Shown here: positions 1 to 32,045 of the stretch, in pieces | Numbering within the stretch: position 1 is the stretch's first letter | Layout: each line of letters opens with the position of its first letter | From: Micromonospora inaquosa | Lineage (GTDB): Bacteria > Actinomycetota > Actinomycetes > Mycobacteriales > Micromonosporaceae | DNA length: 32,815 bases | Direction: 5' to 3' | NCBI RefSeq assembly: GCF_003857055.1 | Contig: NZ_QGSZ01000137.1 | Span: forward strand, 1 to 32,815 | Position numbers and translations under genes: made by a program | Notes under the pieces: generated by a model | Database searches by the model: none | The model's input: only the letters and a program-made list of their open reading frames with translations | What the model was told of the DNA's origin: nothing

Positions 1-131
1 CCGCGTACGCCATGCCTGCTACCGACCTGGAGCGGGTGTTGGCCGACGTGTGGGCGCAGGTGTTACGCGTGCAGCGAGTCGGCGTACACGACAACTTCTT
101 CGAACTGGGCGGCGACAGCATCCTCGCCGTG
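1..131 (+). repeat. Direct repeat, copy 1 (PCP-coding)
   Basis: These 131 bases match 3142-3272 with a single synonymous difference (C at 128, T at 3269). They encode the N-terminal half of the carrier domain up to LGGDSILAV. The window starts exactly where the repeat starts. Confidence 0.95.
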
Positions 132-3398: not shown

Positions 3399-3403
3399 CG
3401 CTC

Positions 3404-5011: not shown

Positions 5012-5020
5012 GAGGCAGTG

Positions 5021-13471: not shown

Positions 13472-13473
13472 CC

Positions 13474-14166
13474 TCAGGAACCGCCGGGTGCGAGCGATTC
13501 GAGATAGCGCAGAACCGCGAGTACCCGGCGGTTGTGGTCCTGCTCGTCATGGGAGAGATCGAGTTTGGTGAAGATGCTGCGAATGTGTTTCTCGACCGAC
13601 CGTGGGGCCACGAACAACCGTTCGGCGATGGCGGTGTTCGTCAATCCCTGCGCCATCTGGGCGAGCACTTCGTATTCCCGGCCGGAGAGGCGGTCGACCA
13701 CCGAGCTGCTGCGCATTCTCGTCCGGGCGACGAGCTGCCCGACGACTTCCGGATCGAGGGCGCTGCCCCCGGCCAGCACCCGATGCACCGCCTCGACGAA
13801 GTCGTCGATGTCGGGAACACGGTCCTTGAGAAGGTAACCGATGCCGTGGGTGCCCCGGCTGAGCAGCTCGGTCGCGTACCTCTCGTCCACATACTGCGAG
13901 AGCACCAGCACCCCGATGTGCGGTTGCTCCGCTCGGATCCGAAGCGCCGCGTGGATGCCCTCGTCGCTGAAGGTCGGCGGCATCCGGACGTCGACGATCG
14001 CCAGATCCGGCTTTTGTTCCTCGATCGCGGTGAAGAGGGCGTCCACATCGCCTACCTCGGCTACGACGTCGATCCCCTCGTCCTCGAGCAGCCGAGCGAT
14101 GCCGGTGCGCAGCAGCACTGCGTCGTCGGCGATGACGACCCGGGGATGTTTCCCTACGGTTCCCAA
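13474..14166 (-). CDS. NarL/LuxR-family response regulator
   Basis: 230 residues. The receiver domain has the acidic pair in VIADD, phospho-acceptor Asp59 in IVDVRMPP and the lysine in GYLLKDRV. The C-terminal LuxR HTH (about 160-222) contains LSGREYEVLAQMAQGLTN and SVEKHIRSIFTKL. The start overlaps the end of the kinase gene by 13 bp, so the two are co-expressed as a two-component system. Its stop lies only 2 bp from the stop of the convergent methyltransferase gene, leaving no room for a dedicated terminator. Likely targets are its own operon and the divergent MMPL exporter. Confidence 0.93.
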   Translation of the reverse strand: MGTVGKHPRVVIADDAVLLRTGIARLLEDEGIDVVAEVGDVDALFTAIEEQKPDLAIVDVRMPPTFSDEGIHAALRIRAEQPHIGVLVLSQYVDERYATELLSRGTHGIGYLLKDRVPDIDDFVEAVHRVLAGGSALDPEVVGQLVARTRMRSSSVVDRLSGREYEVLAQMAQGLTNTAIAERLFVAPRSVEKHIRSIFTKLDLSHDEQDHNRRVLAVLRYLESLAPGGS

Positions 14167-15398
14167 GGAAGAATCGCCCTCACCTCAGTGGGCCCACCCG
14201 GCGGACTCTCCACTTCGAAGATCCCGTCCACCGCGTGCACCCGGTCCGCTAGCCCGGTGAGCCCTCCGTTGGCGGTGAGCTCGGCGCCGCCCATGCCCTC
14301 GTCGATGATCCGCACCTCGAGCTGGTCACCGGACGCATCCGCGATCCGGGAGAGCTTGATCGTGACTGGCGCCGCGCCAGCGTGCTTGGCGGCGTTCGCC
14401 AGCGCCTCTGACACGACATAATAGCCCATCGCCTCGATCCGGCGAGACGGACGCTCCGGAAGGTCGATGTCCAGTTCGACCGGCGAGGGGTGCCGGCCGG
14501 CCGCCGCCACGATCGCCGCGACGAGTCCGCGTTCGGTCAGGATCGGCGGGTGCGCGCCACGGGCGATGGCCCGTAGTTCCTGCACCGCAGCCGTTGCCTC
14601 CGCCTGCGCGGTGTCGAGCAGCTGGCGGGTCTTCGCCATGTCGGTGTCACCCAGCCGCTTTGCCCGGCTGACGGCCAGCGCCACCGTGAGCAGACGCTGC
14701 TGCGCGCCGTCGTGCAGGTTGCGTTCGATCCGCGCCCGTTCCCCGGCCGCCGCGTCGACCAGCGCGGCGCGGGTGGATTCCAGCGTGGCGATGCGGCGCT
14801 GCAACCCCACGGTTTCGTCCTCACCCTGGATCCACCGGCCGAACGTGGTCCGCACCAGGACCGCCCAGCGGGCCAGGTGCAGGGTGCCGGTGGCCAGCAG
14901 GAGACCGAGCGGAATGCCGACCACGGATGCGCCGTAGCTGATCGGGAAACCTCTTATGTTGGCGTAGTCGATCGGGATCATGGTGGCGATCCACGGCATG
15001 TTGACCAGCGTGAAGGCGATGAGGAGCAGCGCGGTGACGAGGGTGCCCACGCCGAGGGACCAGAACGCGATGGCGATGCTGTGCGCGAAGGCGCGCCAGG
15101 CTCGCCCGTCGACGAAGCCCCGGAGGCCGGGCGTGGGTGCCGGGTCTGGGGTCTGGACGCCGGCGATCAGCAGGGCGGCCCGGTCCAGCCGGACCGCCCA
15201 GCGCGCGGCGAACGTCGCCACCGGGATGAGCGTGAGGCCAATTAGGAAAGCGGCGATGCCGATCACCCCGGTGACCATCAGCAAAAAGGGCACGAGATAG
15301 AGGGGGACCAGCGAGAGTGACACCAGGAGATAGGCGCTCGCCCGCCACCCGTCCTCGCGGAGCAGAACGGGTTTTCGCTCCCCGAGCCATTTGTTCAT
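14154..15398 (-). CDS. Sensor histidine kinase (HisKA_3 type)
   Basis: 414 residues. The N-terminal 190 residues hold several hydrophobic segments (for example the stretch around LVPLYLVPFLLMV), forming an integral-membrane sensor region of the kind found in many actinobacterial kinases. The dimerisation/phosphoacceptor motif RIERNLHDGAQQRLL puts the phospho-His at about 229. The ATPase domain has the N box (SEALANAAKHA) and a G-box-like IIDEGMGG. GGAG lies about 8 nt upstream of the ATG at 15398. It presumably phosphorylates the response regulator encoded immediately downstream. The signal is unknown; cell-envelope stress or the local natural product is plausible given the adjacent exporter. 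Confidence 0.93.
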   Translation of the reverse strand: MNKWLGERKPVLLREDGWRASAYLLVSLSLVPLYLVPFLLMVTGVIGIAAFLIGLTLIPVATFAARWAVRLDRAALLIAGVQTPDPAPTPGLRGFVDGRAWRAFAHSIAIAFWSLGVGTLVTALLLIAFTLVNMPWIATMIPIDYANIRGFPISYGASVVGIPLGLLLATGTLHLARWAVLVRTTFGRWIQGEDETVGLQRRIATLESTRAALVDAAAGERARIERNLHDGAQQRLLTVALAVSRAKRLGDTDMAKTRQLLDTAQAEATAAVQELRAIARGAHPPILTERGLVAAIVAAAGRHPSPVELDIDLPERPSRRIEAMGYYVVSEALANAAKHAGAAPVTIKLSRIADASGDQLEVRIIDEGMGGAELTANGGLTGLADRVHAVDGIFEVESPPGGPTEVRAILPWEP

Positions 15399-15596
15399 CG
15401 TCTACTCCAGCTTCGTGTAGGGCGATGTTCACGACGCTACCGGTGCGCTCGGCGTCGCCGCGTGGCCCCGGACCCTTCAAAAGAGGTAGTGCTAGCCACA
15501 CCCCCGAGGGCGGGCTAACGTGCCAGCGCCTCCATTCGCCTGGTCGATAGCGTCAAATGACCGTCAGGACAGAAGCTCGGCCAACGGGAGGACCCC
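15399..15596. promoter_or_regulatory. Divergent promoter region, kinase / MMPL exporter
   Basis: The 198-bp gap between oppositely transcribed genes must hold both promoters. A short inverted motif TAGCC (15493-15497) / GGCTA (15513-15517) spaced by 15 nt is a possible regulator site. It is too short to be convincing alone. Confidence 0.35.
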
Positions 15597-17825
15597 TTGG
15601 GTGTCAAGGAGATCAACCAGCCACTGCCGCGACCGCCGGGCCTGGTGGGGGAAGGCAACCCCGCAGTCCCCCGTGGGCTGGCCGAACGCCTCGCGATGTG
15701 GAGCGCCCGCAGGCGAGTCCTCGTTCTCGTTCTCTGGCTGCTGCTGACCCTGACGGCCTACGCCTCCTCATTTCTGGTGCCAGGTACGGCGATCCAGGAC
15801 GCCGACTATCTCGACGGTGAGTCCGCCGTCGCCGAGCGCGCCGTGGACACCGCCGAGTTCGACGAGGGCGCCATGGAGACCGTCCTGATCCAGAGCCGCA
15901 GCGGCACCCTGGACCGCTCGACGGGCACCGCGGTCGCCGAGGAGTTGAAGCGGGCGTACGGAGGCGTCGGTGTGCTCACCGTCCGCGGACCGAACTTCTC
16001 GACGGACAACCGCTCGGCGATGCTGTCGGTGGAGCTCGACCGCGGGCGTGGGGAGGACCGCAAGGAACCGATCGAGGTCGTCGAGCCGATGCTCGACGCC
16101 ACGGCATCCGTGCAGAAGGCGCATGGCGACCTGCGGATCGAGCAGATCGGCGCCGGCTCGATCCGCAAGGATTTCTCCATCCAGGATGCCAAGGACTTCC
16201 GGCGTGCCGAGCTGATCAGCATTCCGATCACCCTGGTCATCCTGCTGATCGCGTTCGGCGCGCTCGCCGCGGCCGGCATCCCGCTGCTGCTCGGTCTCAC
16301 GGCCGTCGGCGCAGCCCTGGGCATCAGCGGGCTGGTGTCAGCACTCGTACCGATCAGCCCCTTCCAGTCGAGCCTGGTGATGCTGCTCGGCCTGGCGGTC
16401 GGCGTCGACTATTCGCTGTTCTACGTGCGCCGGCAGCGTGAGGAGCGGGCTGCCGGACGGAGCCTGCATGAGGCGCTGCTTCGCACCGCGGCCACGTCCG
16501 GCCGGGCCATCATCGTCTCCGGCGTCGCGGTCGCGATCGCGGCCGCGGGCATGTACTTCACCAACAGCGCCCTGTTCGACTCGCTCGCGACCGGTACGAT
16601 CCTGGTCGTCCTGATGGCTGTCCTCGGTTCGCTCACCGTGGTCCCGGCGATGCTGGCGCTGCTCGGCGACAAGGTGAACTCGCCGCGCATTCCGCTGCTG
16701 TGGCGGCGCTCACAGGCGGCCAGCGAGAGTCGGATCTGGAACACGATCCTGCGCCCCGTGCTCAAGTCTCCCAGCCTGACCGTGCTGCTCGGACTGGTGT
16801 TGATCGGCCTGATGACCGCTCCGGTGGCCGGGATGAAGCTGCAGATGCCCACCGACGACCAGTTGCCCAAGAGTTACCCGATCGTGCAGACCCGCGATCG
16901 GTTGGTGGCGGCGTTCCCTGGCGAGGGCTCCAGCCACACCGTCGTCGTCGAGGCCGATCCGGCCAGCGCCGAGCAGGTCCGCACGGCCATGGCCGACCTG
17001 ATGGCCCGCGCCGGCGCGACCGGTCAGTTCTCCGCGGTCGATGACCCGCGTATCACGACCTCGGTCGACGGGAGGACCACCCGGATGTTCGTGCCGTTTC
17101 CGCAGCGGGTCGACAGCCCCGAGGCGGAACAGACGCTGCAGTTGCTGCGGACCGAGCTGGCTCCGGCGGCGCTGGGCGGCATACCCGGGGCAACCTGGGC
17201 GGTCGGCGGCTCCACCGCATTCAGCTCCGACGTCTCCTCGGCACTGCGTGAACGCCTGCCACTGATCGCCGGCTTTGTGCTGCTGCTCAGCCTGATCGTG
17301 ATGCTGCTGGCGTTCCGATCGATCATCATCGCGGCTGTCACCACGGTGCTGAACATCCTGTCGGTCGCGGCGTCCTTCGGCATTCTGACGCTGGTGTTTC
17401 AGAACACCTGGGCCGAGGATCTGCTCGGGTTCGACTCCAGCGGGTTCGTGGTCGCGTGGATTCCGGTCATCCTGTTCGTCGTGCTCATCGGCCTGTCGAT
17501 GGACTACAACGTGTTCATCCTCAGCCGGATCCGGGAGCCGTTGCACCGCGGCGCTGACCTGCGCGACTCGGTCCGCCACGGCATCGCCTCGTCGGCCGGC
17601 GTGGTGACCAGCGCCGCGATGGTAATGGTGGCGGTGTTCGCGGTGTTCGCGACGCTGTCGACGTTGGAGATGAAGCAGCTGGGTGTGGGCTTGGCCATCG
17701 CCATCCTGGTGGACATCACGATCATCCGGGCGCTGCTGCTGCCGGGCATCCTGATGATGCTCGGCAAGGCACCGTGGAAGGAACACAAGGCGCTGCGCCG
17801 GGTTCCCTCCGTAGCGCACGAGTGA
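15597..17825 (+). CDS. MMPL/RND-family membrane exporter
   Basis: 742 residues from TTG 15597, preceded by GGGAGGA at 15586-15592; ATG 15696 is a possible alternative start. The protein has the two-fold MMPL layout: a transmembrane helix near residues 35-60, an extracytoplasmic domain, a five- to six-helix bundle with GVDYSLFYVRRQREE, then a second such half ending with IGLSMDYNVFILSRIREP and a final helix group. MMPL proteins use proton motive force to export lipids, siderophores or antibiotics. Its place next to a two-component system and a lipopeptide-type locus makes self-resistance or product export likely, but this is inferred from context only. Length is normal for actinobacterial MMPL transporters. 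Confidence 0.93.
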   Translation: MGVKEINQPLPRPPGLVGEGNPAVPRGLAERLAMWSARRRVLVLVLWLLLTLTAYASSFLVPGTAIQDADYLDGESAVAERAVDTAEFDEGAMETVLIQSRSGTLDRSTGTAVAEELKRAYGGVGVLTVRGPNFSTDNRSAMLSVELDRGRGEDRKEPIEVVEPMLDATASVQKAHGDLRIEQIGAGSIRKDFSIQDAKDFRRAELISIPITLVILLIAFGALAAAGIPLLLGLTAVGAALGISGLVSALVPISPFQSSLVMLLGLAVGVDYSLFYVRRQREERAAGRSLHEALLRTAATSGRAIIVSGVAVAIAAAGMYFTNSALFDSLATGTILVVLMAVLGSLTVVPAMLALLGDKVNSPRIPLLWRRSQAASESRIWNTILRPVLKSPSLTVLLGLVLIGLMTAPVAGMKLQMPTDDQLPKSYPIVQTRDRLVAAFPGEGSSHTVVVEADPASAEQVRTAMADLMARAGATGQFSAVDDPRITTSVDGRTTRMFVPFPQRVDSPEAEQTLQLLRTELAPAALGGIPGATWAVGGSTAFSSDVSSALRERLPLIAGFVLLLSLIVMLLAFRSIIIAAVTTVLNILSVAASFGILTLVFQNTWAEDLLGFDSSGFVVAWIPVILFVVLIGLSMDYNVFILSRIREPLHRGADLRDSVRHGIASSAGVVTSAAMVMVAVFAVFATLSTLEMKQLGVGLAIAILVDITIIRALLLPGILMMLGKAPWKEHKALRRVPSVAHE

Positions 17826-19468: not shown

Positions 19469-19760
19469 CGCCTGCCTCGGACGATGCCTAGCCTCCGGAG
19501 CGGGCCAAGCGCAAGCGTCGGAGATCAGTGCTGCGTGGTGGCAATTCGTGTGTGCGGTGGACATGCCATTCGGGGGGCGGTTGAACCGTGGATCATGATG
19601 CTAGTGATTTCTGCTCCGGCCGCTGGCCCCTCCAGGCCCGATGGCGGCTCGCTGAGCAGGCGGGGCCCGCCGCGCCGCTCGCCGGGGGAGCCGACGTCGA
19701 CCGGGTGGCGCGGGCCAGCGGGGCGCCGACGGTTTGTACCCGGGCCGGGAGAACCGGACC

Positions 19761-21581
19761 GTGAAGGCCCGCCTACTGGGGCCGGTCGACGTCTGGTGCG
19801 CCGGTGAACGGATCGGCCTGCACGGCACGAAGATCAGGACTGTGCTGGCGATGCTGCTGCTCGCCCGCGGGCACGTCGTCGAGGACGAGCGCCTCACCCG
19901 GATGCTCTGGGGTGACCAGGCGCCGGCCACCGCCGCCGCCCAGTTGCAGACCTACGCCTCGCGGCTGCGCCGCATGCTCGCCGGGCACGGCGAGATCGTC
20001 CGACAGCGGCCGGGCTACCTCCTACGTCTCGGCCGGGCCGGCTGCGAGGTCGACCTGGTGGAGTTCGACCGGTTGTCGACCCGGGGCCGGATAGAACTGC
20101 GCCGCGGTGATCACCGGGCGGCGTCCGACGCGTTCACTGCCGCGCTCCAGCTGTGGCACGGACCCGCGCTGGGTGGGGTGAGTGACACCCTGATCGAGGC
20201 GGAGACCCCGTCTCTGCTGGAGCGACGCCTGGCGGTCGTCGAGGCCCGCATCGAGGCCGAACTCGCCCTCGGTCGGCACGCCGCGGTGATCTCGGAGCTG
20301 ACCGGTCTGGTTGCCGCCCACCCACTCCGGGAGGGTCTCCGGGGGCAGTTGATGACGGCGCTGTACCGCAACGACCGGCACGCTGACGCGCTGCGTGTCT
20401 ACCAGGAGTACCGCTGCCACCTGGTCGAGGAGCTGGGCATCGACCCGGGGCCGGCGCTGCAGGGGGTGAACCGGGCGGTGCTGCGCGGCGACGAGGCGAT
20501 GGCGCCTCCGCCGGTCCTGGCCGGTCCGACCCCGAACACGACAGCCGTGCCGGTCTGTCCGCAACCCCCGGCTCCACCCGCCGATTTCACCGGCCGCGAG
20601 TTCGAGCTGACCCGGCTGCGTGACGCATTGACCGGCGACCGCTCGTCGGGGGCCCGGATCGCCGCGGTGGTCGGGTTGTCCGGTACCGGCAAGACCGCGC
20701 TGGCGTTGCGGGCGGCGAACGACCTGAACGCTGCCTTCCCGGACGGTGCGCTCGTGGTGGCGATGCGGGACTCCGCAGGGCGGGCCCGTCCGCCCGCGGA
20801 GGTGCTGACCGAGATATGCGCCACGGTGGGCGGCGGGAGCAAGACGGACCCGGGCAACGCGTACCGGCAGTACGTCACGAGCCGCCGAATGCTGCTGGTG
20901 CTCGACGACGCCGTGGACGAGAAACAACTCCGCCCGCTGCTGACCGTCCCGATGACCTGCGCGGTGTTGATCACGAGCCGCGCTAGGCTGACCGCGCTGG
21001 ACGGTGTGCGACCGGTGCTACTGGGTGGGTTCTCGGCCAGCGAGTCGGCGCTGTTGCTCGCCCGGATCGCGGGGGAGGCCCGGGTGGTGGCAGACCCCGC
21101 CTCCGCCCACGCCATCGCGACCACCTGCGGCCACCTGCCCATCGCGGTACGCATCGCGGGCGCCCGACTGGCCGCGCGTCCGCACTGGAGCCTCGCCTCC
21201 TACGCCGCTCGGCTCATCGACCAACGGCGGACGCTGGACGAACTGAGGGTGGCGGACCTGTGCGTCCGTGCCGTCTTGAGCGCGACCTACTTGGCACTCG
21301 ACGACACCCGGCGCGTCGTGCTCAGGCAACTGGCGGCGGATCGGGCGACCACCATCACCGTCGACCATGCGGCGCGAGTCCTGGCCGTATCCCGAGCGGA
21401 GGCCGCCGAGCGTCTCGACGAGCTGGCCGAGGCACACCTGCTCGCAGTGGAGGGGGTGGACGGCCGGCTGGTCTATCAGCTACCCGCGCTGCTCCGGCTC
21501 TACGCGCGCGAGCAGCTGCCTGCGACCAGCACCGTGACCAGCGCGAGCTTGCGGCTCACCACGGTGGGCGATGCTGCGTGA
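19761..21581 (+). CDS. SARP/AfsR-type transcriptional regulator (HTH-BTAD-NB-ARC)
   Basis: 606 residues from GTG 19761, chosen because GGGAGAA (19747-19753) sits 7 nt upstream and translation then begins at the usual KARLLGPVDV. The winged-helix DNA-binding domain spans about 1-95, the bacterial transcriptional activation domain about 98-245 (ending LRVYQEYRCHLVEELGIDPGP) and the NB-ARC ATPase about 270-520, with P-loop GLSGTGKT at 305-312 and LLVLDDAVD as Walker B. It ends without the long TPR tail of AfsR. SARP-family proteins activate antibiotic clusters by binding direct repeats near the -35 region. As the first gene of the same-strand lasso locus, it is the likely pathway activator, though it could also act on the upstream NRPS/PKS locus. 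Confidence 0.92.
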   Translation: MKARLLGPVDVWCAGERIGLHGTKIRTVLAMLLLARGHVVEDERLTRMLWGDQAPATAAAQLQTYASRLRRMLAGHGEIVRQRPGYLLRLGRAGCEVDLVEFDRLSTRGRIELRRGDHRAASDAFTAALQLWHGPALGGVSDTLIEAETPSLLERRLAVVEARIEAELALGRHAAVISELTGLVAAHPLREGLRGQLMTALYRNDRHADALRVYQEYRCHLVEELGIDPGPALQGVNRAVLRGDEAMAPPPVLAGPTPNTTAVPVCPQPPAPPADFTGREFELTRLRDALTGDRSSGARIAAVVGLSGTGKTALALRAANDLNAAFPDGALVVAMRDSAGRARPPAEVLTEICATVGGGSKTDPGNAYRQYVTSRRMLLVLDDAVDEKQLRPLLTVPMTCAVLITSRARLTALDGVRPVLLGGFSASESALLLARIAGEARVVADPASAHAIATTCGHLPIAVRIAGARLAARPHWSLASYAARLIDQRRTLDELRVADLCVRAVLSATYLALDDTRRVVLRQLAADRATTITVDHAARVLAVSRAEAAERLDELAEAHLLAVEGVDGRLVYQLPALLRLYAREQLPATSTVTSASLRLTTVGDAA

Positions 21582-21598: not shown

Positions 21599-21737
21599 GG
21601 ACCGGCGGCCCGTGTCGGGTGGGATCCGGCGCCGACAGCGCGAATAGCTGGAATGTCGGCGACCGCCGGACTGTCGCCGAGCTACCCGTTGGCGGATCGC
21701 ACGGCGACGACCGTCGACCTCTGTGGAAGGACGGCGC

Positions 21738-23537
21738 ATGAGACGCACTGCCCGGATCCTCGGCCGATCGCCGCTGACGGCCCTGCTCGGCTACGTCCGC
21801 CCGCACGCGGGCAGTCTGCTGGCCGGGGCGGCGCTGATGTTCCTTGGCGGCGTGGTGACGCTCGCGCAGCCCCTGGTGGTGAAGCACCTGCTTGACGCGC
21901 TGACCACCGGCACCCCTTACACCCGTCCCATGTTCCTGCTCGGAGGGCTGCTGCTGGTCAGCGCCGTAGCCGGCGTCTGCGGCATGTACCTCTTGGAGTG
22001 CACGGCGGAAAGCGTCGTGCTGACCGTACGCCGACGGCTCATCGCCCAACTGCTCCGGCTGCGGGTACGGGTCCTGGACGACGTGGAACCGGGCGACCTC
22101 CTGTCCCGGGTGACCGGCGACACCACGCAGCTGCGAGCGGCCACGACCAGCAACGTCGTCGACCTGGTGGCAGGCAGCATCCAGCTCGTCGGCGCGGTTG
22201 TCCTGATGGCGCGCCTCGACGGCGTGCTGCTGACCGTGGTGGTGCTCGTCCTGCTGGTGCTCGGTGCCGTGCTGCTGGCCCTCGTACCCCGCATCCGTGA
22301 CACGAGCCTGCGGGCGCAGGAGGAGGTCGGCGGCATGGGTGCCGTCCTGGAACGCGCTCTCGGCGCCCTCCGCACAGTGAAGGCCAACGGGGCCGAGGAG
22401 CGCCAGGTCGCCGCCGTCCACGCGCTGGCGGGTCGCGCATGGCAGCGAGGCCGGCAGGCCGCGCAGTGGACGTCGGTCGCTGGCATCGCCACCGGTCTGG
22501 CCGTACAGCTCGCCTTTCTCGTGGTGCTCGGCGTCGGCGGGGCACGGGTGGCCGCCGGACAGCTCGCCGTGTCCTCGCTGATCGCATTCCTGCTCTACCT
22601 GTTCTATCTCACGGGCCCGGCGACGCAGGTGGTGGGCAGCGTCACCGGACTGCAGGCCGGTCTGGCTGCGGCCCGCCGGATCGAGCAGCTGGGTCAGCTG
22701 CCCGCCGAGGACCTGACCCGACCGGCGGAGGGGCGGGCCCCCGACGACGGCGTTCCCGCCAGCGTGACCTTCCACGCTGTCAGCCTCCGGCACCATCCGG
22801 GCGGTCCGCCGATTCTGCGCGACGTCGACCTTCGGATCCCGGCGACCGGCCTTACCGCACTGGTCGGCCCGTCCGGCGGCGGTAAGACAACCCTGCTCGC
22901 TCTGGTCGAACGCTTCTACGATCCCACCCGTGGGCGGGTGGAGATCGACGGACGCGACGTGCGCGACTGGCCGTTGGCGGAGCTGCGTGCCCGCATCGGC
23001 TACGTCGAGCAGGACGCCCCGGTGCTGTCCGGGACGCTGCGCGACAACCTGTTGCTGGGGACGGCGGGCGGCGTACCGGAGGACTGGATGGCGGCGGTGC
23101 TGGAGCGGACCCGCCTGGCCTCACTGGTACAGCGCCTGCCACACGGCCTCGACACCGTCGTCGGGCACCGGGGTGCTGCCCTGTCCGGCGGAGAGCGGCA
23201 GCGCGTCGCGGTCGCTCGGGCCATCCTCCGGCAGCCGGGTCTGCTTCTGCTCGACGAGCCGACCTCCCAGCTCGACGCCGTCAACGAGCAGGCACTACGC
23301 GAACTCGTTACCGCGCTGGCCCGGACCACCACCGTGTTGATGGTCGCCCATCGGCTGTCCACGGTGATCCGGGCCGATCGCATCGTGCTCGTCGAGGGGG
23401 GTCGGATCCGCGCGGTCGGCACCCATGCGCAACTTCTGGCCGGAGATGTGCTCTACCGGCGTCTCGCCACGACGCAGCTTCTCGCCGAGCCACTCACGGT
23501 CGGGGTGGTCGATAGCCGAAGTATGGAGCAGATATAG
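21738..23537 (+). CDS. lasD: ABC exporter (TMD-NBD fusion), lasso peptide export/immunity
   Basis: 599 residues; ATG 21738 follows AAGGA at 21727-21731. The N-terminal half has about six transmembrane helices. The C-terminal nucleotide-binding domain has Walker A GPSGGGKT at about 377-384, Q-loop YVEQD, signature LSGGERQR near 482, Walker B LLLLDEPTS near 500 and H-loop VAHRLST. This half-transporter works as a homodimer. Lasso loci usually encode such an exporter (D protein), which secretes the mature peptide and often gives immunity. Here it is the first gene of the operon and sits 94 bp upstream of the precursor gene. There is no N-terminal C39 peptidase, consistent with leader removal by the separate B2 protein. 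Confidence 0.92.
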   Translation: MRRTARILGRSPLTALLGYVRPHAGSLLAGAALMFLGGVVTLAQPLVVKHLLDALTTGTPYTRPMFLLGGLLLVSAVAGVCGMYLLECTAESVVLTVRRRLIAQLLRLRVRVLDDVEPGDLLSRVTGDTTQLRAATTSNVVDLVAGSIQLVGAVVLMARLDGVLLTVVVLVLLVLGAVLLALVPRIRDTSLRAQEEVGGMGAVLERALGALRTVKANGAEERQVAAVHALAGRAWQRGRQAAQWTSVAGIATGLAVQLAFLVVLGVGGARVAAGQLAVSSLIAFLLYLFYLTGPATQVVGSVTGLQAGLAAARRIEQLGQLPAEDLTRPAEGRAPDDGVPASVTFHAVSLRHHPGGPPILRDVDLRIPATGLTALVGPSGGGKTTLLALVERFYDPTRGRVEIDGRDVRDWPLAELRARIGYVEQDAPVLSGTLRDNLLLGTAGGVPEDWMAAVLERTRLASLVQRLPHGLDTVVGHRGAALSGGERQRVAVARAILRQPGLLLLDEPTSQLDAVNEQALRELVTALARTTTVLMVAHRLSTVIRADRIVLVEGGRIRAVGTHAQLLAGDVLYRRLATTQLLAEPLTVGVVDSRSMEQI

Positions 23538-23631: not shown

Positions 23632-23766
23632 ATGGCCAAAAAGTCAGCGTACGAGCGACCCACCCTGTCGAAGGCGGGCACGTTCGCCCAGAGGACGGCC
23701 GGCAGTCTCTTCACGAACTGCCGCGAGTCCTTCGTGACCCAGAAGCCGCGCGCCGTCTGCAGCTGA
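23632..23766 (+). CDS. lasA: Lasso peptide precursor (class III-like core)
   Basis: 44 residues. The leader (1-23) has the lasso recognition pattern YERPTL, then GTF, with the conserved Thr22 at position -2 before the core. Cleavage after Ala23 gives a 21-residue core: ring GSLFTNCRE, then tail SFVTQKPRAVCS. Gly1 is the usual ring nucleophile, and Glu9 is the only acidic residue in the core, so a 9-residue Gly1-Glu9 macrolactam is the only option. The only cysteines are Cys7, in the ring, and Cys20, next to last in the tail; a bond between them gives the ring-tail topology of class III peptides such as BI-32169 (Cys6-Cys19). Hand-calculated monoisotopic mass with macrolactam and disulfide is about 2309.10 Da. 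Lys15, Arg8 and Arg17 make it cationic. Topology is predicted, not shown. Confidence 0.93.
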   Translation: MAKKSAYERPTLSKAGTFAQRTAGSLFTNCRESFVTQKPRAVCS

Positions 23767-23804: not shown

Positions 23805-25649
23805 ATGGCGGACGTTCCGGAGGCGGCTTCCGGCCTGTCGTGGTTCGTGGCGCTGCCGGACACCGATGCCGGCGATGTGGTCCTCAGTTCCCTTCGGCAG
23901 CGAGCCATCGGCCTTCAGATGATCACCCATGGCTCCGGGCGGCCGTGGCTGGTCGGCCGGTGGGCGGACGACGAGGCGGCGGTGGCCACGTTCGGCGACC
24001 GTCGCCTCGTCGTCATCGGTGAACACCGTCTGCGGACGAGCGACCTGCTGCGGCTGGGTGCGCATGCCCGGGACCCCGCGGACCTGTGCGCCGCCGTACG
24101 CGACCAGCCGGGGAGTTTCCACGTGCTGGCCGCCACACGCGCCGGCTCGGCGGCACAGGGCAGCCTCTCCGGGTTCCGTCGCGTCTACTTCACCACCGCC
24201 GGGGACGCTGTGCTGGTCAGCGACCGCGCCGATGTGCTGGCGGCACTTACCGGGTCGGACGTGGACGAGGAGTCCCTGGCCCTGCGGCTGCTGGCGCCGT
24301 ACGCTCCCTGGCCGTTGTTCTGGCAACCGGTCTGGCGCGGGGTGCACGCGGTCCGTCCGGACGAGCGCCTGATCCTGACCGCTGGCGCCGCCCCCCGCGC
24401 GACGGCGCGCTGGCACCCACCGGAGCCGGTGAGTGATCTGGCCACGGCAGCTGCGCGACTGCGTGACGCGCTGTCCGACGCCGTCGCCGTGCGGGTCCAC
24501 GATCGCGACGTGATCGCCAGCGACCTCAGCGGAGTGGACTCGACCGCCCTGTGCTCCCTTGCGGTACGGACCGGCACCCGCGTGGTGGGGCTGACGTGTG
24601 TGAGCCCCGACCCACTCGACGACGACCTGCCATGGGCCCGGCGCGCCTCCGTTGATCTCGGCGGGGTGATCCACGAGGTGGTGGACGGGAACGCGAATCC
24701 GCTGCCGTACGACGGCGTCGGAGAACCCACGGATCGCTTTGACGAGCCGAGTGCCGCCGTGATGTACCGTGCCGGGTTCCTGGCCGTCTCCCGTCGGGCC
24801 GCGGCGCACGGTGCCCGGGTACGACTCACCGGCTTCGGCGGCGACGAGCTGCTCACCACCGATCCCGTGCTACAGGTGACGCTCCTGCGGACGCATCCCG
24901 GCACCGCGCTGCGTCAGCTCTGGTTGATGCGCGCCGCGTATCGCTGGGGGCGCCGGGAAACGCTGCGGGCGCTACTCGACCGGCGTTCCTACGCCACCTG
25001 GATGGCTTCGCTCGCCGACGGGGTCGGTGCGAGCGGCAGCGCGTTGTCCGGCCCGCTGCTGGCCTGGGGCGCTCCGGTCTGGACGGCACCGTGGGTGGTG
25101 CCGGATGGTCGCAGATTGCTACAGCAGGTCCTGCGCGAGCGGGCCACCGAGGCGGTGCCACTGGTCAACGACCGCGGGCTGCACGGTCGCCTGGCGGGCG
25201 TCTACGCCGGGGCGGCAGCGGCGCGACACCTTGCCCAGACCACTCGACGGATCGGGGTGTCGGTCGCGCTGCCCTACCTGGACGACCAGGTGGTCGATGC
25301 CTGTCTGGCTGCTCCGGTGGTCGACGTGAGCTCCCCGCGTGACTACAAGCCGCTCGCCCGCGCAGCGATGCGGGGGGTGGTGCCAACGGCCCTGCTCGAG
25401 CGCACCACCAAGGCTGACACCTCGATCGCTGCGGATCGCGGCGCCCGCCGGCACCGAGCCGACCTGCTGGCGCTTTCCGAGGACTCCCGGCTGGCGGAGC
25501 GCGGCCTGATCGACGCGGCGGCCCTCCGTGCGGCGATCGAACACCCCCACGACCGCACCTGGTACGACCTCGACCAGACCCTTGCCTGCGAGACCTGGTT
25601 GCGCAGCCTAGAGGCCCGTGCCGGTGATCCGTTGACGGAGGAACGATGA
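23805..25649 (+). CDS. lasC: Lasso cyclase, asparagine-synthetase-like (C protein)
   Basis: 614 residues from ATG 23805, with GTGAGGAG about 8 nt upstream. The N-terminal third is a degenerate glutamine-amidotransferase-like domain; the C-terminal part is the ATP-dependent synthetase domain with PP-loop SDLSGVDSTALCSL near 239-252 and LTGFGGDELLT further on. In lasso pathways this enzyme adenylates the ring acid side chain (here Glu9 of the core) and forms the amide with Gly1 after the tail is threaded. It is co-transcribed with the precursor (38-bp gap) and overlaps the next gene by an ATGA. The first Gly of the usual SGG(x)DS loop is kept and the second is Val (SGVDS). This variation is tolerated in some homologues as far as known. 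Confidence 0.93.
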   Translation: MADVPEAASGLSWFVALPDTDAGDVVLSSLRQRAIGLQMITHGSGRPWLVGRWADDEAAVATFGDRRLVVIGEHRLRTSDLLRLGAHARDPADLCAAVRDQPGSFHVLAATRAGSAAQGSLSGFRRVYFTTAGDAVLVSDRADVLAALTGSDVDEESLALRLLAPYAPWPLFWQPVWRGVHAVRPDERLILTAGAAPRATARWHPPEPVSDLATAAARLRDALSDAVAVRVHDRDVIASDLSGVDSTALCSLAVRTGTRVVGLTCVSPDPLDDDLPWARRASVDLGGVIHEVVDGNANPLPYDGVGEPTDRFDEPSAAVMYRAGFLAVSRRAAAHGARVRLTGFGGDELLTTDPVLQVTLLRTHPGTALRQLWLMRAAYRWGRRETLRALLDRRSYATWMASLADGVGASGSALSGPLLAWGAPVWTAPWVVPDGRRLLQQVLRERATEAVPLVNDRGLHGRLAGVYAGAAAARHLAQTTRRIGVSVALPYLDDQVVDACLAAPVVDVSSPRDYKPLARAAMRGVVPTALLERTTKADTSIAADRGARRHRADLLALSEDSRLAERGLIDAAALRAAIEHPHDRTWYDLDQTLACETWLRSLEARAGDPLTEER

Positions 25650-25906
25650 GCTGGAGACTGCGCGACCGGGTCTCGTGGGCGCCGACTGAGTACGGTGGTG
25701 TCCTGCTGGACTGCGCGTCCGGTGAGTACTGGACGCTCAACTCGACCGCTGCGGCGGTACTCGCGGCCCTACTGGCTGGCGCCGACATCGCCGGCGCGAC
25801 GGCACATCTCGCCGGGGAGTTCGACGGCGACCTGGACGTGGTCGCCGTGGAGGTCCCGCAACTCGTCGCTGAGCTGCAGGGCGCCGGTCTGGTGGTCGAG
25901 CGGTGA
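25646..25906 (+). CDS. lasB1: PqqD-like leader-binding RRE protein (B1)
   Basis: 86 residues, starting inside the cyclase stop (ATGA). The PqqD-fold pattern is clear: GGVLLDCASGEYWTLNSTAAAV in strands and helix (about 17-38), then VPQLVAELQGAGLV at the end. B1 proteins bind the leader peptide, here the YERPTL region, and deliver the precursor to the B2 peptidase. Length is normal. It overlaps the B2 start by a GTGA. Confidence 0.92.
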   Translation: MSWRLRDRVSWAPTEYGGVLLDCASGEYWTLNSTAAAVLAALLAGADIAGATAHLAGEFDGDLDVVAVEVPQLVAELQGAGLVVER

Positions 25907-26343
25907 CCAACGAGCAGACGCTGGCGCACCACCCGGGCGGGCTGGGCCTGCGTCGGCGGTTGCTGGTGCATGCCGTGGTCGTGGTCGCCCGGCTGCTGTC
26001 CACCCAGACGCCCGCTCGGATCGAACGGGCCCTGCGCCGGCTACGCGGTGGGGCACGTCCAGCGAGCCGGGAGGAGGCAGCGGTGGCGCGCCGGCACACC
26101 GTCATGGTCAGCGCGTTCTGCAGCGGCCCGCTGGGATGTCTGCCCCGATCCATCGCCACGGTGCTGCTGTGCCGGCTGCAGGGCAGCTGGGCGACCTGGA
26201 GGGTGGGCATCCGGCGCTATCCGCCGTTCGGGGCGCACGCCTGGGTCGAGGCGGGTGGCGGGGCCGTGGACGAGCCGTATCCGGATGACTTCCACATCCC
26301 GCTGCTCACCGTCACCCCAGCCGAACAGCCGGCACCAGCATGA
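25903..26343 (+). CDS. lasB2: Transglutaminase-like leader peptidase (B2)
   Basis: 146 residues with a GTG start. The papain/transglutaminase-like triad is visible as Cys79 in GCLPRSIA, His112 in FGAHAWVEA and probably Asp123 in AVDEP. B2 cleaves the leader after position -1, freeing the amine of core Gly1 for cyclisation. The N-terminal 60 residues are basic and helical. It overlaps both the RRE gene and the MauE-like gene by 4 bp, so the whole set is one tightly coupled operon. Confidence 0.92.
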   Translation: MTNEQTLAHHPGGLGLRRRLLVHAVVVVARLLSTQTPARIERALRRLRGGARPASREEAAVARRHTVMVSAFCSGPLGCLPRSIATVLLCRLQGSWATWRVGIRRYPPFGAHAWVEAGGGAVDEPYPDDFHIPLLTVTPAEQPAPA

Positions 26344-26876
26344 ACACCACCCTGCTGTACGTCTCGCACATCTGCCGGGAAGCGGTCGCCTTCGTGTTCG
26401 TGCTCTCCGTCCTCGGCAAGATCCGCAGCCGGGCCGCGTTCGCGCGGTTCCGGCGCGCGGCGCGTCTGCTGTCCGGGCTGCCGGAGAAGTGGTCGGATGT
26501 CGTCGCCTGGTTGGTCGTGGTCGCCGAGATGGCCGTCGTCGCCGGTTCGGTGACCGCTTCCACCGCGGCCTGGGCGTTCGCCGGGGCCATGGCGCTGCTG
26601 TGTGCCTTTACCTGGGGACTGTCCCGAAGCCCTGCCTCGGCGATGGCGTCCGGGTGTGGCTGTTTCGGTCCGGTCGCCTCGACGCGGCGCACCGCGATCA
26701 TGCGCAACGTGGTGCTGCTGGTGGTCGCCGTCGCCGGCATCGGCAGCACAGCAGCCGTGCGGTTCGAGGCGGCGAACTGGGCTGCCGTGCTTGTGTGCAC
26801 GGTCGCCGCTGCGGCGCTGGCGGCCTTCCTTGTCAGGCTCGAAGACTTCGTCTCCCTGTTCACCACCCCGCTGTGA
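26340..26876 (+). CDS. MauE/DoxX-like membrane protein, candidate disulfide partner
   Basis: 178 residues with about four transmembrane helices. It resembles MauE, the membrane partner of MauD in methylamine dehydrogenase maturation: an early helix with SVLGKIRSRAAFARF, and the conserved cysteine motif SGCGCFG, with Cys106 and Cys108 between helices. MauE-type proteins are thought to relay thiol/disulfide exchange across the membrane. Its start overlaps the B2 stop (ATGA) and a thioredoxin-like gene follows 8 bp later. As the lasso core has exactly two cysteines, a role in forming or shuffling that disulfide is the simplest explanation. Function is inferred from context. Confidence 0.8.
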   Translation: MNTTLLYVSHICREAVAFVFVLSVLGKIRSRAAFARFRRAARLLSGLPEKWSDVVAWLVVVAEMAVVAGSVTASTAAWAFAGAMALLCAFTWGLSRSPASAMASGCGCFGPVASTRRTAIMRNVVLLVVAVAGIGSTAAVRFEAANWAAVLVCTVAAAALAAFLVRLEDFVSLFTTPL

Positions 26877-26884
26877 GGCCCTGA

Positions 26885-27469
26885 ATGCCTGTGCTCATCG
26901 CCGTGGTCACCCTGTGTGGGGTTGCGTGCGTGTTCAACACGGCCGTACTCGTCGCGGTGGTACGTCGCCTCCGGATCCAGTCGGAGCTCTTGTCCGAGAC
27001 CGAGGCGCGGGGGGTACCGGCGAGGGCGTTGCCGGTTGGCGCGACCGTCGGCGACTTCCTGGCGTACGACACGGAGGGGCGGGCGGTCACGGCCGCGATG
27101 CCGGCGCACACCCTGATCGGCTTCTTCAGTCCCACCTGTGGCTCCTGTCGTCGTGAACGCGGACGATTCCGGCGGGCCGCGGCACGCTGGCCGGGCGGAC
27201 GGTCCCAGGTGGTGGCCGTCGTCACTGGTCCGGACGCCTCGGCCCGCTTCCTCTCCCGGCTTACGGCAGTGGCCCGCATCGTGGTGGACCAGGACGAGAG
27301 TGTGCGGCACGCATTCGGTGTGCAGGGATTCCCAGCGGCCTTCGTGGTGGCGGATTTGGGCCGGTTGACCTGGACGGGCCTGCACGTCGATGTCGTGCCG
27401 GGGCTTGCCGAGGAGCCCGTAACTGTCAGCCCCGGTCGGCCGGAGACGGATTCGCCGACGGCTGTCTGA
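26885..27469 (+). CDS. TlpA/MauD-like membrane-anchored thioredoxin
   Basis: 194 residues. One N-terminal transmembrane anchor (about 1-28) is followed by a thioredoxin fold facing outside: VGDFLAYD, then FFSPTCGSC with active-site Cys85-Gly-Ser-Cys88, and the cis-Pro region FGVQGFPAAFVV. Paired with the MauE-like protein, it probably forms an extracytoplasmic oxidoreductase acting on the exported or exporting lasso peptide. It is the last gene of the operon; a hairpin with a short T-run follows. Other lasso loci for disulfide-containing peptides are known to carry oxidoreductase genes, which supports but does not prove this role. Confidence 0.82.
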   Translation: MPVLIAVVTLCGVACVFNTAVLVAVVRRLRIQSELLSETEARGVPARALPVGATVGDFLAYDTEGRAVTAAMPAHTLIGFFSPTCGSCRRERGRFRRAAARWPGGRSQVVAVVTGPDASARFLSRLTAVARIVVDQDESVRHAFGVQGFPAAFVVADLGRLTWTGLHVDVVPGLAEEPVTVSPGRPETDSPTAV

Positions 27470-29286: not shown

Positions 29287-29640
29287 TTACTCGCCTGGCG
29301 CGGTGCGGGCGGGGTCGTCGCACCAGCGGCGGGGCAGATACAGCTCCCAGTCGATCAGCGTGCGCCCGGCTGGGCTGGTGTAGGCCAGGAACACCCCGAG
29401 TTGGCAGTTCTCCGTCCGCCCGGCCGTGCCCGAGTACTGACGCTTCACCCCCGCCGACTTGATGCCCTTCTTCAGGAATCCGGTCTCATCGACGATCAGC
29501 ACCCCGTCGTCATGGCCGAGGTGCTCGGTCACGTAGGCAAACAGGTCGTCGCGAACAGCGTCCGGGTCCCACGCTGACTTGTTGAGCAGCCGTTGCATCC
29601 GGTCCGGTGTCGCATCGCCGGCGGCCTCGGCCAAAGTCCG
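29287..29640 (-). pseudogene. IS701-family transposase internal fragment
   Basis: The minus strand encodes [18 protein letters not shown], a DDE-type [13 protein letters not shown] (first catalytic Asp), then [20 protein letters not shown] and LIDWELYLP. This is the N-terminal third to half of IS701-type transposases. Both ends are missing: upstream codons show no homology and the frame stops at 29287 after a divergent tail. It is non-functional. Confidence 0.75.
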
Positions 29641-29778
29641 AGTCCCTGGCGGACCACCGATCGCACCATTGTGGAAGGACGATGCAAAAGTGAGGCATTC
29701 CCTGACCATCCGTCCAGTGCATAGCGTCCTCAGCAGGTCGCGGCAAACAACGCCGCTACTCGACGAGGGGAAGCATCT

Positions 29779-30249
29779 ATGCAGAAGCTCATGAGGACGG
29801 TCCTGGCGACGTTGATCGTCGCCGCGGGAGCCGTCGCACCTCAGGCCTCGAGCGCCGCAGCCGCGGCGCCGGCCGGCAACATCACCACGAGCCACGTGGC
29901 AACCACCAGCACGGTCCCGGCTCCTTCGGCTCCGTTGGCGATCCAGACCGGGGAGTACGAATACAACTGCATCGGAACCGATGGCAGCAGCTTCTGGATC
30001 GGCCCTGGAAGGCCGACCACCGACTGTCACGGTAGCTACCTGCAGAAGTACCTCGACGGAAACCTGCTTGCGACCTACAACCTCGCCTACGGCGGCGGAG
30101 CAGCACAGAATCCCCCGTGGAACACCGGATGCGTCCTGGCGATCGCCGGCGGGGTTGCGCTCTTCGTCTTCCCTCCGACCGGCGTCGCGGCGTGGGTCAC
30201 ATTGAGCGGGCTGGCGGCCGCTAGCCTTCTCGACTCGTGCGTGGTCTAG
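29779..30249 (+). CDS. Small secreted Cys-containing protein, function unknown
   Basis: 156 residues with a good GAGGGGAAG Shine-Dalgarno at 29765-29773. Residues 1-31 form a Sec signal peptide (MQKLMR, hydrophobic core, cleavage near AAAAA-PAG). A Thr/Pro-rich spacer follows, then a central region with Cys64 and Cys83, then a Gly-rich hydrophobic C-terminus (about 115-156) bounded by Cys118 and Cys154. Four cysteines after the signal peptide suggest two disulfides. The hydrophobic Gly/Ala-rich C-terminal segment recalls membrane-active bacteriocin domains, but I recognise no family. Its stop codon overlaps the reverse-strand end of an IS630 relic, so the natural C-terminus may have been altered by insertion. 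Confidence 0.65.
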
Positions 30250-30480
30250 CGCGTCGCGCCGGAAATTCGCCTACAAAATGGTGTGAGTGATCCGAGGATC
30301 TCCTCGGCGATCTTGGCTCAGATGAATGGTCGTGGATCGCTGCTCCAGTCGGTGATCCACGACCGGAGGTCGGCTTCGAGGGACTGCACCGATTTGTGGA
30401 CGCCGCGGCGGACCTTCTGGTTGGTGAGGAACCCGAACCAGCGTTCGACCTGGTTGATCCAGGAGGATCCGGTCGGAGTC
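30246..30480 (-). pseudogene. IS630-family transposase C-terminal relic
   Basis: On the minus strand TPTGSSWINQVERWFGF, then RRGVHKSVQSLEADL and WITDWSSDPRPFI match the IS630 C-terminus. The next codon, Trp in intact members, is TGA (30318-30320). Beyond it the same frame continues as [20 protein letters not shown] to a TAG at 30246-30248, exactly as in intact members. So the fragment carries a nonsense mutation and also lacks the N-terminal DDE core. Confidence 0.8.
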
Positions 30481-30639
30481 AATGTGTCGGTTCGGTGCGG
30501 GTCCGACTGCTGCTCATCGATCAGCCCACCGAGAGGCTTGACCAGGACCTGCGGCGCCAGCTGCCCACAGTGGACAGGATGCATCCAACTCGTCCGGATC
30601 CTGTAGATCTTGACACAAAATAGAGCGAGGTGTTGACTT

Positions 30640-31065
30640 GTGGTCATGGGCCCGGCTTCAGGAGACCAAGGATCGTTCGCCAGTTCGGATGCGGCTGACC
30701 GCCAGCTTGTCGTTCCGAGGTGGTATTACGCGATACTCGGACTAATCGCGGGCGTTGCGGTCGTGGCATTTGCGCTTCTGCCGCAGCCGATCGCGGGCCC
30801 CTCTCTCGTCGTCGCAGCCCTGCTTGTGGCAGTGACGAGCCGTATCGCGGCGAAAGCCTCGGGAACTCGTCTGCCCATACCGGCCAGCGCTGTCGGCGTC
30901 GGTTATCTGGTAGCCCTGGCGGTCGCCCTGGTCGGGTCCTTGGTCGTGGTATGGACCGTGGTGCGTCCTGACGGTCCTTCCTGGCTCGCCTGGATGCTTG
31001 GCGCTCTTGTGTTCATGGTCGCACTCAGCGGGACCTGGGTGGCCAGGACGGGGCGTTCGGCATAG
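30640..31065 (+). CDS. Small hydrophobic membrane protein, unknown
   Basis: 141 residues from GTG 30640 (GCGAGG about 9 nt upstream); ATG 30646 is an alternative. After a 25-residue hydrophilic start there are four predicted transmembrane helices (around 29-46, 52-65, 84-106 and 117-133). No recognised motif is present. It lies between two IS relics with no operon partner. Codon use is typical of the genome, which supports it being real. Confidence 0.6.
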   Translation: MVMGPASGDQGSFASSDAADRQLVVPRWYYAILGLIAGVAVVAFALLPQPIAGPSLVVAALLVAVTSRIAAKASGTRLPIPASAVGVGYLVALAVALVGSLVVVWTVVRPDGPSWLAWMLGALVFMVALSGTWVARTGRSA

Positions 31066-31088
31066 GCCTCAGTGGTCCTCGGCCCTAA

Positions 31089-31361
31089 CGGGTCAGCATG
31101 CACCAATCGCATCTGCGAGTGCCCTCTGACCCGAGGATGACGGAACCCTGGAGAGCTCCCATCATCCAAGATCAGCAGCCTCATGATCCCGCTCGAGGTC
31201 TCGCCCAAAGATGGGTGAGAGTGAGACCGGCCGTGCGGTGACGTCGTCCCTCTGTGGTGCCGCAAGCCTGTAGATCAGCATGATGCTGGGAACCGCGTGC
31301 CAGGTACTTCAAGTTGTTGCCCCGAGCACGAGAGTCAGACCTCTTCGACCTGTTGGTTCCC
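31089..31361 (+). ncRNA. Bridge-RNA-like structured region upstream of IS110 relic (candidate)
   Basis: The non-coding stretch ahead of the recombinase frame holds nested complementary segments. First stem-loop: CGGGTCAG (31089-31096) with CTGACCCG (31126-31133), GCAC (31100-31103) with GTGC (31119-31122), and TCGCA (31107-31111) with TGCGA (31114-31118). Second: CAGCA (31276-31280) with TGCTG (31284-31288). Third: GGGAACC (31288-31294) with GGTTCCC (31355-31361), enclosing CAGGT (31301-31305) with ACCTG (31348-31352) around a 42-nt loop. IS110 elements are known to express a guide (bridge) RNA with large internal loops from the end upstream of the gene. Location and architecture fit; expression and loop function are not shown. 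Confidence 0.35.
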
Positions 31362-31404
31362 CTGCACAGCCACCTGATCGAACTCGGCTGCGGGGGAGGG
31401 CTTG

Positions 31405-32045
31405 ATGGACCTCATCCACGAACGGTGTGGAGGGATCGACATCGGCAAGGCCGACCTGAAGGCATGTATTCGGGTTCCCACCGCGGGTAGGCGCCGCCGC
31501 AAGGAGGTACGCACATTCGTGACCACCACCAACGCGTTGCTGGCGCTGCGGGACTGGCTGACGAGCGAGGGCATCACCATCGTCGGGATGGAAGCCGTGC
31601 TCAACGCCCGGCACATGCACAACGTCCCCGGCCGCAAGACCGTTCGGCCGGCAACTCGAACTCCTCAGCACCATCCCTGGCGTCAGCCAGCGGACCGCCG
31701 AAGTGATCATCGCCGAGACCGGCACCGACCCGCACCCTTCCCCACCGCCGGGCACCTCGCCTGATGGGCCGGGATATGCCCCGGCAAAAACGAATCCGCC
31801 GGCAAACACAAATCCGGCCGAATCCGAGCCGGCAACACTTCGCTCAGAGCCGCCCTCGGCGAAGCCGCCATGGCCGCGACCCGCACCAAGAAAACCTATC
31901 TGTCAGCCCGCTACCGAAGACTAACCGCACGACGCGGCTACAAAGACCCCTCGTCGCCGTCGCCCACACCATCCTCGTCGCCAGCTGGCACATACTCACC
32001 AACGACGCCACCTACCACGACCTCGGCATGTCGGTGCAGCGGACC
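31405..32045 (+). pseudogene. IS110-family recombinase relic
   Basis: The N-terminus reads HERCGGIDIGKADLKACIRVP (partly quoted; DEDD-type first Asp), then WLTSEGITIVGME. After that the gene is broken. About 20 codons are missing before NARHMHNVPGRKT, over 100 are missing after it, and the middle part (LELLSTIPGVSQRTAEVIIAE) is in another frame. The Tnp20 part returns to the first frame at PTAGHLA, where the catalytic Ser codon is replaced by TGA (31762-31764), followed by WAGICPGKNESAGKHKSGR and AAMAATRTKKTYLSARYRRL. A further frameshift near 31948 leads to VAVAHTILVASWHILTND. At least five lesions make it certainly inactive. Confidence 0.88.

What the first reader, a model, noticed from the sequence alone, without database searches (positions are those of the whole stretch)
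23632..23766. Predicted new class III-like lasso peptide with ring-to-tail disulfide
The core has Gly1, a single acidic residue (Glu9) and exactly two Cys: Cys7 inside the ring and Cys20 at the penultimate tail position. This forces a 9-residue Gly1-Glu9 ring and predicts a Cys7-Cys20 bond, as in BI-32169, a rarely seen topology. Unlike Trp/Pro-rich BI-32169, this core is cationic (Arg8, Lys15, Arg17) and hydroxyl-rich, so it looks like a distinct sequence family.
Basis: partly seen in the sequence, partly recalled or inferred. Interest (0 to 1): 0.85.

Follow-up and report, generated by a model that had tools for sequence, protein, structure and literature searches.

The report
Lasso peptide with own disulfide makers
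This bacterial gene cluster encodes a small peptide predicted to be tied into a lasso and likely locked by one disulfide bond between ring and tail; its genes sit beside two redox genes that probably help make that bond, which would make it possible to test how such bonds arise.

Summary
Window 23632-23766 encodes a 44-aa lasso precursor with a good ribosome site, a YxxPxL leader, Thr at -2 and the core GSLFTNCRESFVTQKPRAVCS (two Cys; Glu9 the only acid), inside a complete lasso operon (ABC, A, C, B1, B2). Twenty distinct precursors of the family, the window's included, all have two core Cys; 15 have Cys7/Glu9/Cys20. All 8 two-Cys clusters found in 300 genomes carry MauE-TDOR; none of 7 fetched Cys-free DUF5972 clusters does. 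In 130 B2 loci, MauE occurs in 4 of 10 with at least two core Cys and 0 of 53 with fewer. The cyclase tree places the family apart from class I, so its Cys pair and redox genes probably arose independently. Related TDORs often lie beside Cys-rich peptides, so the TDOR looks borrowed. Ring, threading and disulfide are not shown by sequence; other two-Cys cores, three of them ring-tail-like, lack MauE, and class I homologues are reported dispensable. Verdict: a new class III-like variant with a dedicated redox pair.

The parts
23632..23766 (+). Lasso precursor A, 44 aa; leader 1-23 (YERPTL, Thr at -2), core 24-44 GSLFTNCRESFVTQKPRAVCS
   Evidence: PF19397; NF033521
23616..23626 (+). Likely ribosome-binding site GAAGGAGGTGA before the precursor ATG
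   Evidence: read
21723..23537 (+). ABC transporter, membrane plus ATPase domain; likely exporter (lasso D)
   Evidence: PF00664, PF00005
23796..25649 (+). Lasso cyclase C (asparagine-synthetase-like)
   Evidence: PF00733, 4.9e-32; best NCBIfam cyclase model below its cut-off; tree
25646..25906 (+). B1, PqqD-like leader-binding protein
   Evidence: PF05402; NF033530 over cut-off
25903..26343 (+). B2 leader protease (transglutaminase-like)
   Evidence: PF13471; NF033537 over cut-off
26340..26876 (+). MauE-family membrane protein, several hydrophobic segments, Cys-Gly-Cys at 106-108; predicted redox partner of the TDOR
   Evidence: (PF07291, 5.5e-21)
26885..27469 (+). Thioredoxin-like TDOR (MauD/ResA-like) with one N-terminal hydrophobic segment and CGSC at 85-88; predicted thiol oxidase of the peptide
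   Evidence: Redoxin over its cut-off, AhpC-TSA just under; weak, under cut-offs
19734..21581 (+). SARP/AfsR-type regulator (BTAD, NB-ARC) upstream, likely regulator; a SARP match also lies next to the ABC gene of the clusters in L026 and L029

Best explanation
The window holds a lasso-peptide operon whose precursor is predicted to become a threaded lasso (Gly1-Glu9 ring) locked by a Cys7-Cys20 ring-tail disulfide, and the adjoining MauE and TDOR genes likely form or guard that bond during export. Steps: B1 would bind the YxxPxL leader, B2 would cut after Thr-Ala, and C would join Gly1 to Glu9 around the threaded tail (inferred from the families). The membrane-bound TDOR (CGSC), re-oxidised by MauE (CxC), would then join Cys7 to Cys20 as the ABC transporter exports the peptide (inferred; the side of the membrane is not determined). 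Shown directly: the genes, their order, the constant Cys7/Glu9/Cys20, and the co-occurrence of the pair with two-Cys cores in this family.
For: Full operon A, C, B1, B2, ABC. All 20 distinct precursors of the family have exactly two core Cys, 15 of them at 7 and 20 with Glu9 (the second search profile was built from two-Cys precursors, which favours such hits). Core pN/pS 0.21 against leader 0.52. MauE plus TDOR follow B2 in 8 of 8 two-Cys clusters (window, L009, L026-L031) and were found in 0 of 7 fetched Cys-free DUF5972 clusters, L032-L038. CxxC is kept in all 8 TDORs and CxC in all 8 MauEs. In 300 genomes of the window's family the eight best TDOR hits (146.8-413.8 bits) are exactly these eight clusters; the next is 99.6 bits. 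Survey: MauE in 4 of 10 loci with at least two core Cys, 0 of 53 with fewer, 0 of 63 without a found precursor; Fisher p 3.5e-4, ignoring kinship. The other MauE loci are siamycin-like class I (L054) and class IV-like (L061, L073). Of 22 other TDOR loci (the best of 22 genomes), 11 lie beside small Cys-rich peptides (judged by eye), and all 22 have an ABC-transporter match.
Against: No mass, NMR or expression data. Six of the ten survey loci with at least two core Cys lack MauE: ring-tail-like L049, L098, L104, class IV-like L039, L140, and L096 (cut by the contig end); L061 and L073 have MauE but no TDOR found. Class I homologues are reported dispensable for the bonds: a sviF mutant still made sviceucin, found only in mycelia; mslE/mslF mutants still made MS-271 at lower yield, without thiol intermediates; arcumycin and 9401-LP1 clusters lack such genes (PMC9266682, passages). 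The eight clusters are one clade, so their co-occurrence is one event, not eight. Only 3 of the 11 Cys-rich cassettes showed a MauE. TDOR could act as a reductase: its weak PDB matches are a putative thioredoxin and a DsbE-type protein.
Confidence: 0.68

Rival explanations
1. The Cys7-Cys20 bond forms by itself once the tail is threaded; MauE and TDOR instead help export or quality control of the mature peptide.
For: Reported mutants of the class I homologues still make the bonds, and loss of sviF changed where sviceucin was found (PMC9266682, passages). Ring-tail-like cores without MauE exist (L049, L098, L104).
Against: Conserved CxxC and CxC motifs; the pair follows Cys in this family, and related TDORs often lie beside Cys-rich peptides.
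Confidence: 0.25
2. The core is a class I (siamycin-like) lasso that lost the Cys1-Cys13 bridge and kept its redox genes.
For: Same length as humidimycin, Cys7 and acid 9, tail Cys near position 19-20 (PMC7168211, passages); class I clusters also carry a DoxX-type and a thioredoxin-domain gene, and L054 shows a weak MauE match and a CxxC motif match.
Against: Cyclase tree: the family is one clade (100) in a group with six other lasso rows (95), five of them with Cys-free cores, while the class I rows lie elsewhere. The class I MauE match is weak (28.6 bits) and no class I TDOR was found by the family model.
Confidence: 0.06
3. The two Cys stay reduced or bind a metal, or pair between two molecules.
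For: Oxidation cannot be read from sequence; no mass data.
Against: Exactly two Cys in 20 of 20 precursors, one in the predicted ring and one within the last three residues, 13 apart in 17 of 20; redox pair next door.
Confidence: 0.06

Closest known systems
BI-32169 (class III lasso, one ring-tail disulfide)
   Same: Gly1, 9-residue ring (predicted here), one ring Cys and one Cys at or near the C-terminus, 13 apart (sequence in the PMC12427821 table, passages)
   Different: Cys6/Asp9/Cys19 instead of Cys7/Glu9/Cys20; Trp/Pro-rich; its gene cluster had not been identified by the 2022 review
9401-LP1 (class III)
   Same: Named as class III in PMC9266682 (passages)
   Different: Its cluster is reported to have only A-D genes; sequence not seen here
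Siamycin group, class I (humidimycin, sviceucin, MS-271)
   Same: Humidimycin: 21-residue core, Cys7, acid at 9, Cys near the end; clusters with a DoxX-type plus thioredoxin-domain gene pair
   Different: Four Cys with Cys1; distinct cyclase clade in the tree (L054 and L096 as class I rows)
Keywimysin-related RiPP (NCBI label), Pfam PF19397 DUF5972
   Same: Shared leader-type domain; NCBI gives this label to several close relatives
   Different: PF19397 also holds Cys-free cores; keywimysin's own sequence was not compared here
MauE-MauD of methylamine dehydrogenase maturation
   Same: MauE-family protein plus thioredoxin-like partner (the likeness to MauD is recalled); MauE is speculated to help disulfide formation (PMC7794033, passages)
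   Different: Different substrate; no other mau gene was seen among the window ORFs scanned

Membership tests
Lasso peptide | Precursor with YxxPxL leader, Thr at -2 and acid at core 7-9 | tested here: met
Lasso peptide | B1 (PqqD-like), B2 protease and asparagine-synthetase-like cyclase beside it | tested here: met
   (the NF033561 cyclase score, 238.9, is below that model's cut-off of 300; PF00733 is over its own)
Lasso peptide | Threaded isopeptide-ring product | not testable with these tools
   needs MS/MS and NMR
Class III lasso peptide | Exactly one ring Cys and one tail Cys | tested here: met
   given the predicted Gly1-Glu9 ring
Class III lasso peptide | Ring-tail disulfide formed | not testable with these tools
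   predicted only
Class I lasso peptide | Four Cys including Cys1, two disulfides | tested here: not met
   two Cys, Gly1
Class IV lasso peptide | Both Cys in the tail | tested here: not met
   Cys7 lies within the predicted ring
MauE/MauD-type redox pair | MauE domain and thioredoxin-like partner with CxxC and N-terminal hydrophobic segment | tested here: met
MauE/MauD-type redox pair | Oxidises thiols of the peptide | not testable with these tools
   no assay

The most novel reading that the evidence does not exclude
This is a class III-like lasso lineage that evolved its ring-tail disulfide independently of class I and recruited a ready-made disulfide module (MauE-TDOR) from ABC-exported Cys-rich peptide cassettes of the same bacteria; the module actively closes the lasso's lock at export.
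Probability: 0.38. Interest if true: 0.68.

Novelty: new variant of a known kind. Interest (0 to 1): 0.55.

Why it matters
A 2026 review says that the mechanism of disulfide formation in lasso peptides is unknown (PMC13352647, passages), and a 2022 review says very little is known about class III biosynthesis (PMC9266682, passages). If the prediction is right, this family offers one disulfide, two candidate enzymes and related Cys-free clusters as natural controls. The strongly conserved core suggests a specific, unknown target.

Tried and rejected
Plasmid tblastn with the precursor gave no match. Searching three 10-residue pieces of the core in papers found none; this covers only the held open-access library. 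PDB sequence searches with the core and with MauE gave nothing. A first TDOR model had a wrong segment for L028; it was rebuilt from seven seeds (L030 did not fit the seed pattern but was found by the model), with the same eight loci as result. Locus L096 (class I-like) ends soon after B2, so its lack of MauE is not informative; several other survey loci are short because their contigs end (for instance L083, L138, L146, L160). The MauE model was built from this family and the hits it first found, so very divergent MauE or DoxX proteins may be missed; a further hit in L105 was too weak to count (E 0.002). Of 130 survey loci, 63 gave no precursor by my pattern and 4 no B1/B2/C anchor; they are left out of the Fisher test. 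One survey place (G555:C93) is below the B2 model's cut-off, and two loci (L040, L164) overlap. Of the eight Cys-free DUF5972 places, one (G165) was not fetched with long flanks. The tree used 82 of 90 loci with a long cyclase match (score over 150). I considered a class I derivative (tree, quick method, speaks against) and non-lasso readings (the operon speaks against). Structure prediction was not run: I judged that a 21-residue lasso would not be modelled usefully.

Full report
Observation. The stretch 23632-23766 (+) encodes a 44-residue precursor with a strong ribosome site before its ATG. The core has Gly1, Cys7, Glu9 as its only acid, and Cys20.

Setting. The gene sits in an operon-like run on one strand: ABC transporter, precursor, cyclase C, B1, B2, then MauE (26340-26876) and a thioredoxin-like TDOR (26885-27469), with a SARP regulator upstream. 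Pfam names the precursor DUF5972; NCBIfam's lasso leader, PqqD and B2 models pass their cut-offs, its cyclase model does not. The TDOR has one hydrophobic segment at its start and CGSC; MauE has several hydrophobic segments and CGC.

Relatives. Two protein searches listed 6 and 17 proteins, the window's own included. With locus-derived ones there are 20 distinct precursors; all have exactly two core Cys, though the second search used a profile of two-Cys precursors. Fifteen share GSLFT[NS]CRES[FY][VLI]TQKP and Cys7/Glu9/Cys20; fourteen of those have no other core acid, one (P0010) has Asp21. Three have Cys6/Glu9 with Cys19 or 20; two have Cys7/Glu10/Cys22. In seven genes synonymous differences are common in the core and amino-acid ones few (pN/pS 0.21; leader stretch 0.52). 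This reverses the usual pattern, recalled, of conserved leader and variable core. NCBI names some relatives 'keywimysin-related RiPP'. The window's genus is probably Micromonospora: a same-genus genome (G019) has a contig of the same length as that of the Micromonospora echinospora precursor P0006. The family is probably Micromonosporaceae, since genome G176 matches Plantactinospora mayteni (L009) in contig length and place. Both are inferred.

Distribution. PF19397 occurs in 16 of 300 genomes of that family; eight carry two-Cys cores and eight Cys-free ones. Of 394 genomes of the class, only the window's own gave a full-length match to the precursor alignment; nine others matched partly and weakly. 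In these samples the two-Cys family was not seen outside Micromonosporaceae.

Redox pair. All eight two-Cys clusters have MauE and TDOR directly after B2; in seven fetched Cys-free DUF5972 clusters neither was found. A search for the TDOR in 300 genomes of the family ranks these eight first (146.8 bits and more); the next hit has 99.6 bits, although distant TDORs occur in many genomes (85 of 300 have some hit at 1e-15 or better, these eight included). So this TDOR form goes with this lasso family.

Wider survey. From 394 genomes of the class, 99 with a B2 match, I fetched every listed B2 place: 129 loci beside the window. MauE was found in 4 of 10 loci with at least two core Cys (window, L054, L061, L073), 0 of 53 with fewer, 0 of 63 without a found precursor; 4 lacked anchors. 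Fisher p is 3.5e-4 but kinship is ignored: L061 and L073 are sisters in the tree, so there are about three origins. Against the idea of a required pair, L039, L049, L098, L104 and L140 have two Cys and no MauE found; L096 has four Cys but is cut by the contig end; L061 and L073 show MauE without a TDOR. L098 is instructive: its close kin L062 and L092 lack both Cys, so the two Cys were probably gained or lost together.

Origin. The cyclase tree (82 rows, quick method, SH-aLRT) makes the eight clusters one clade (100). It joins them with six rows (95), five with Cys-free cores and one (L075) without a found precursor; class I and class IV-like rows lie together in another group (97). An independent origin of the ring-tail pair is therefore likely. 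Of the other TDOR hits I held 22 loci, the best one of each of 22 genomes: all 22 have an ABC-transporter match, 8 have a MauE hit upstream, and 11 lie beside small Cys-rich peptides with a shared leader (judged by eye, no chance control). MauE and such a peptide occur together in 3 (L186, L190, L192). This fits recruitment of a disulfide module, at least of its TDOR, but no MauE or TDOR tree was built.

Mechanism. Lasso formation by B1, B2 and C follows from the families. That MauE-TDOR makes the bond is inferred. The literature is divided: class I homologues are reported dispensable, with effects on yield or location (PMC9266682, passages), while PMC7168211 and PMC12427821 (passages) state that oxidoreductases form the bonds. 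Which face of the membrane bears the TDOR domain was not settled; it could also act as a reductase.

Print. Searches for the core pieces, for class III lassos, for keywimysin, for lasso with MauE/DoxX terms, for Micromonospora lassos with disulfides and for ring-tail lassos listed no paper that I recognised as describing this family or a class III cluster with such a pair; several listings were cut to the top papers, and all were judged by title and abstract start. I saw passages of PMC9266682, PMC13352647, PMC7168211, PMC12427821 and PMC7794033, and the abstract of PMC12670498. A lasso genome-mining paper that I looked up from memory is not held, so prior tabulation of this precursor cannot be excluded.

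Verdict. A real, well-conserved lasso precursor family of class III-like design with a dedicated redox pair; new variant of a known kind.

Noticed in passing
L185-L206 (22 loci, centred on TDOR relatives): Recurrent cassette: small Cys-rich peptide with a shared leader (about LGDRxLxxxVPxxxAxA), MauD-like TDOR and ABC transporter; MauE as well in 3 (L186, L190, L192), SARP in some. Clear by eye in 11 of 22. Five of the peptides have no NCBIfam match and no Pfam match over cut-off; 23 proteins matched their profile, none with a precomputed Pfam domain, and those named are called hypothetical or uncharacterised. Possibly an undescribed disulfide-rich peptide family.
   Followed up: partly
L031:9201-9341 and L031:9462-9590: Two precursors in one lasso cluster: GSINPFCSRENWWSVKPYAGGCVG, whose only acid is at position 10 (a 10-residue ring, or a shifted cut), and GTIRGCAKELIFARPPYLCS in the BI-32169 register. 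P0015 and P0016, each from a contig of 9356 bases, look like a second such pair.
   Followed up: partly
   Followed up: partly
L049 and L104: Further ring-tail-like cores GGCDYGNDNHYQTMCPSP and SLGRLSCNDILGFRALWTTSPAC without MauE; the cyclase of L104 is a long branch.
   Followed up: no
window 12-17825 (+): NRPS/PKS-type genes upstream: condensation/adenylation protein, acyltransferase protein, class III aminotransferase, methyltransferase, MMPL protein; ORF 13450-14421 had no match; the 1894-aa ORF 5018-10702 was not scanned.
   Followed up: no
window 29287-31809: By eye, fragments that look like transposase remnants downstream of the lasso operon; not tested.
   Followed up: no
window 29779-30249 (+): 156-aa protein with a signal-peptide-like start (by eye) and no Pfam match.
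   Followed up: no
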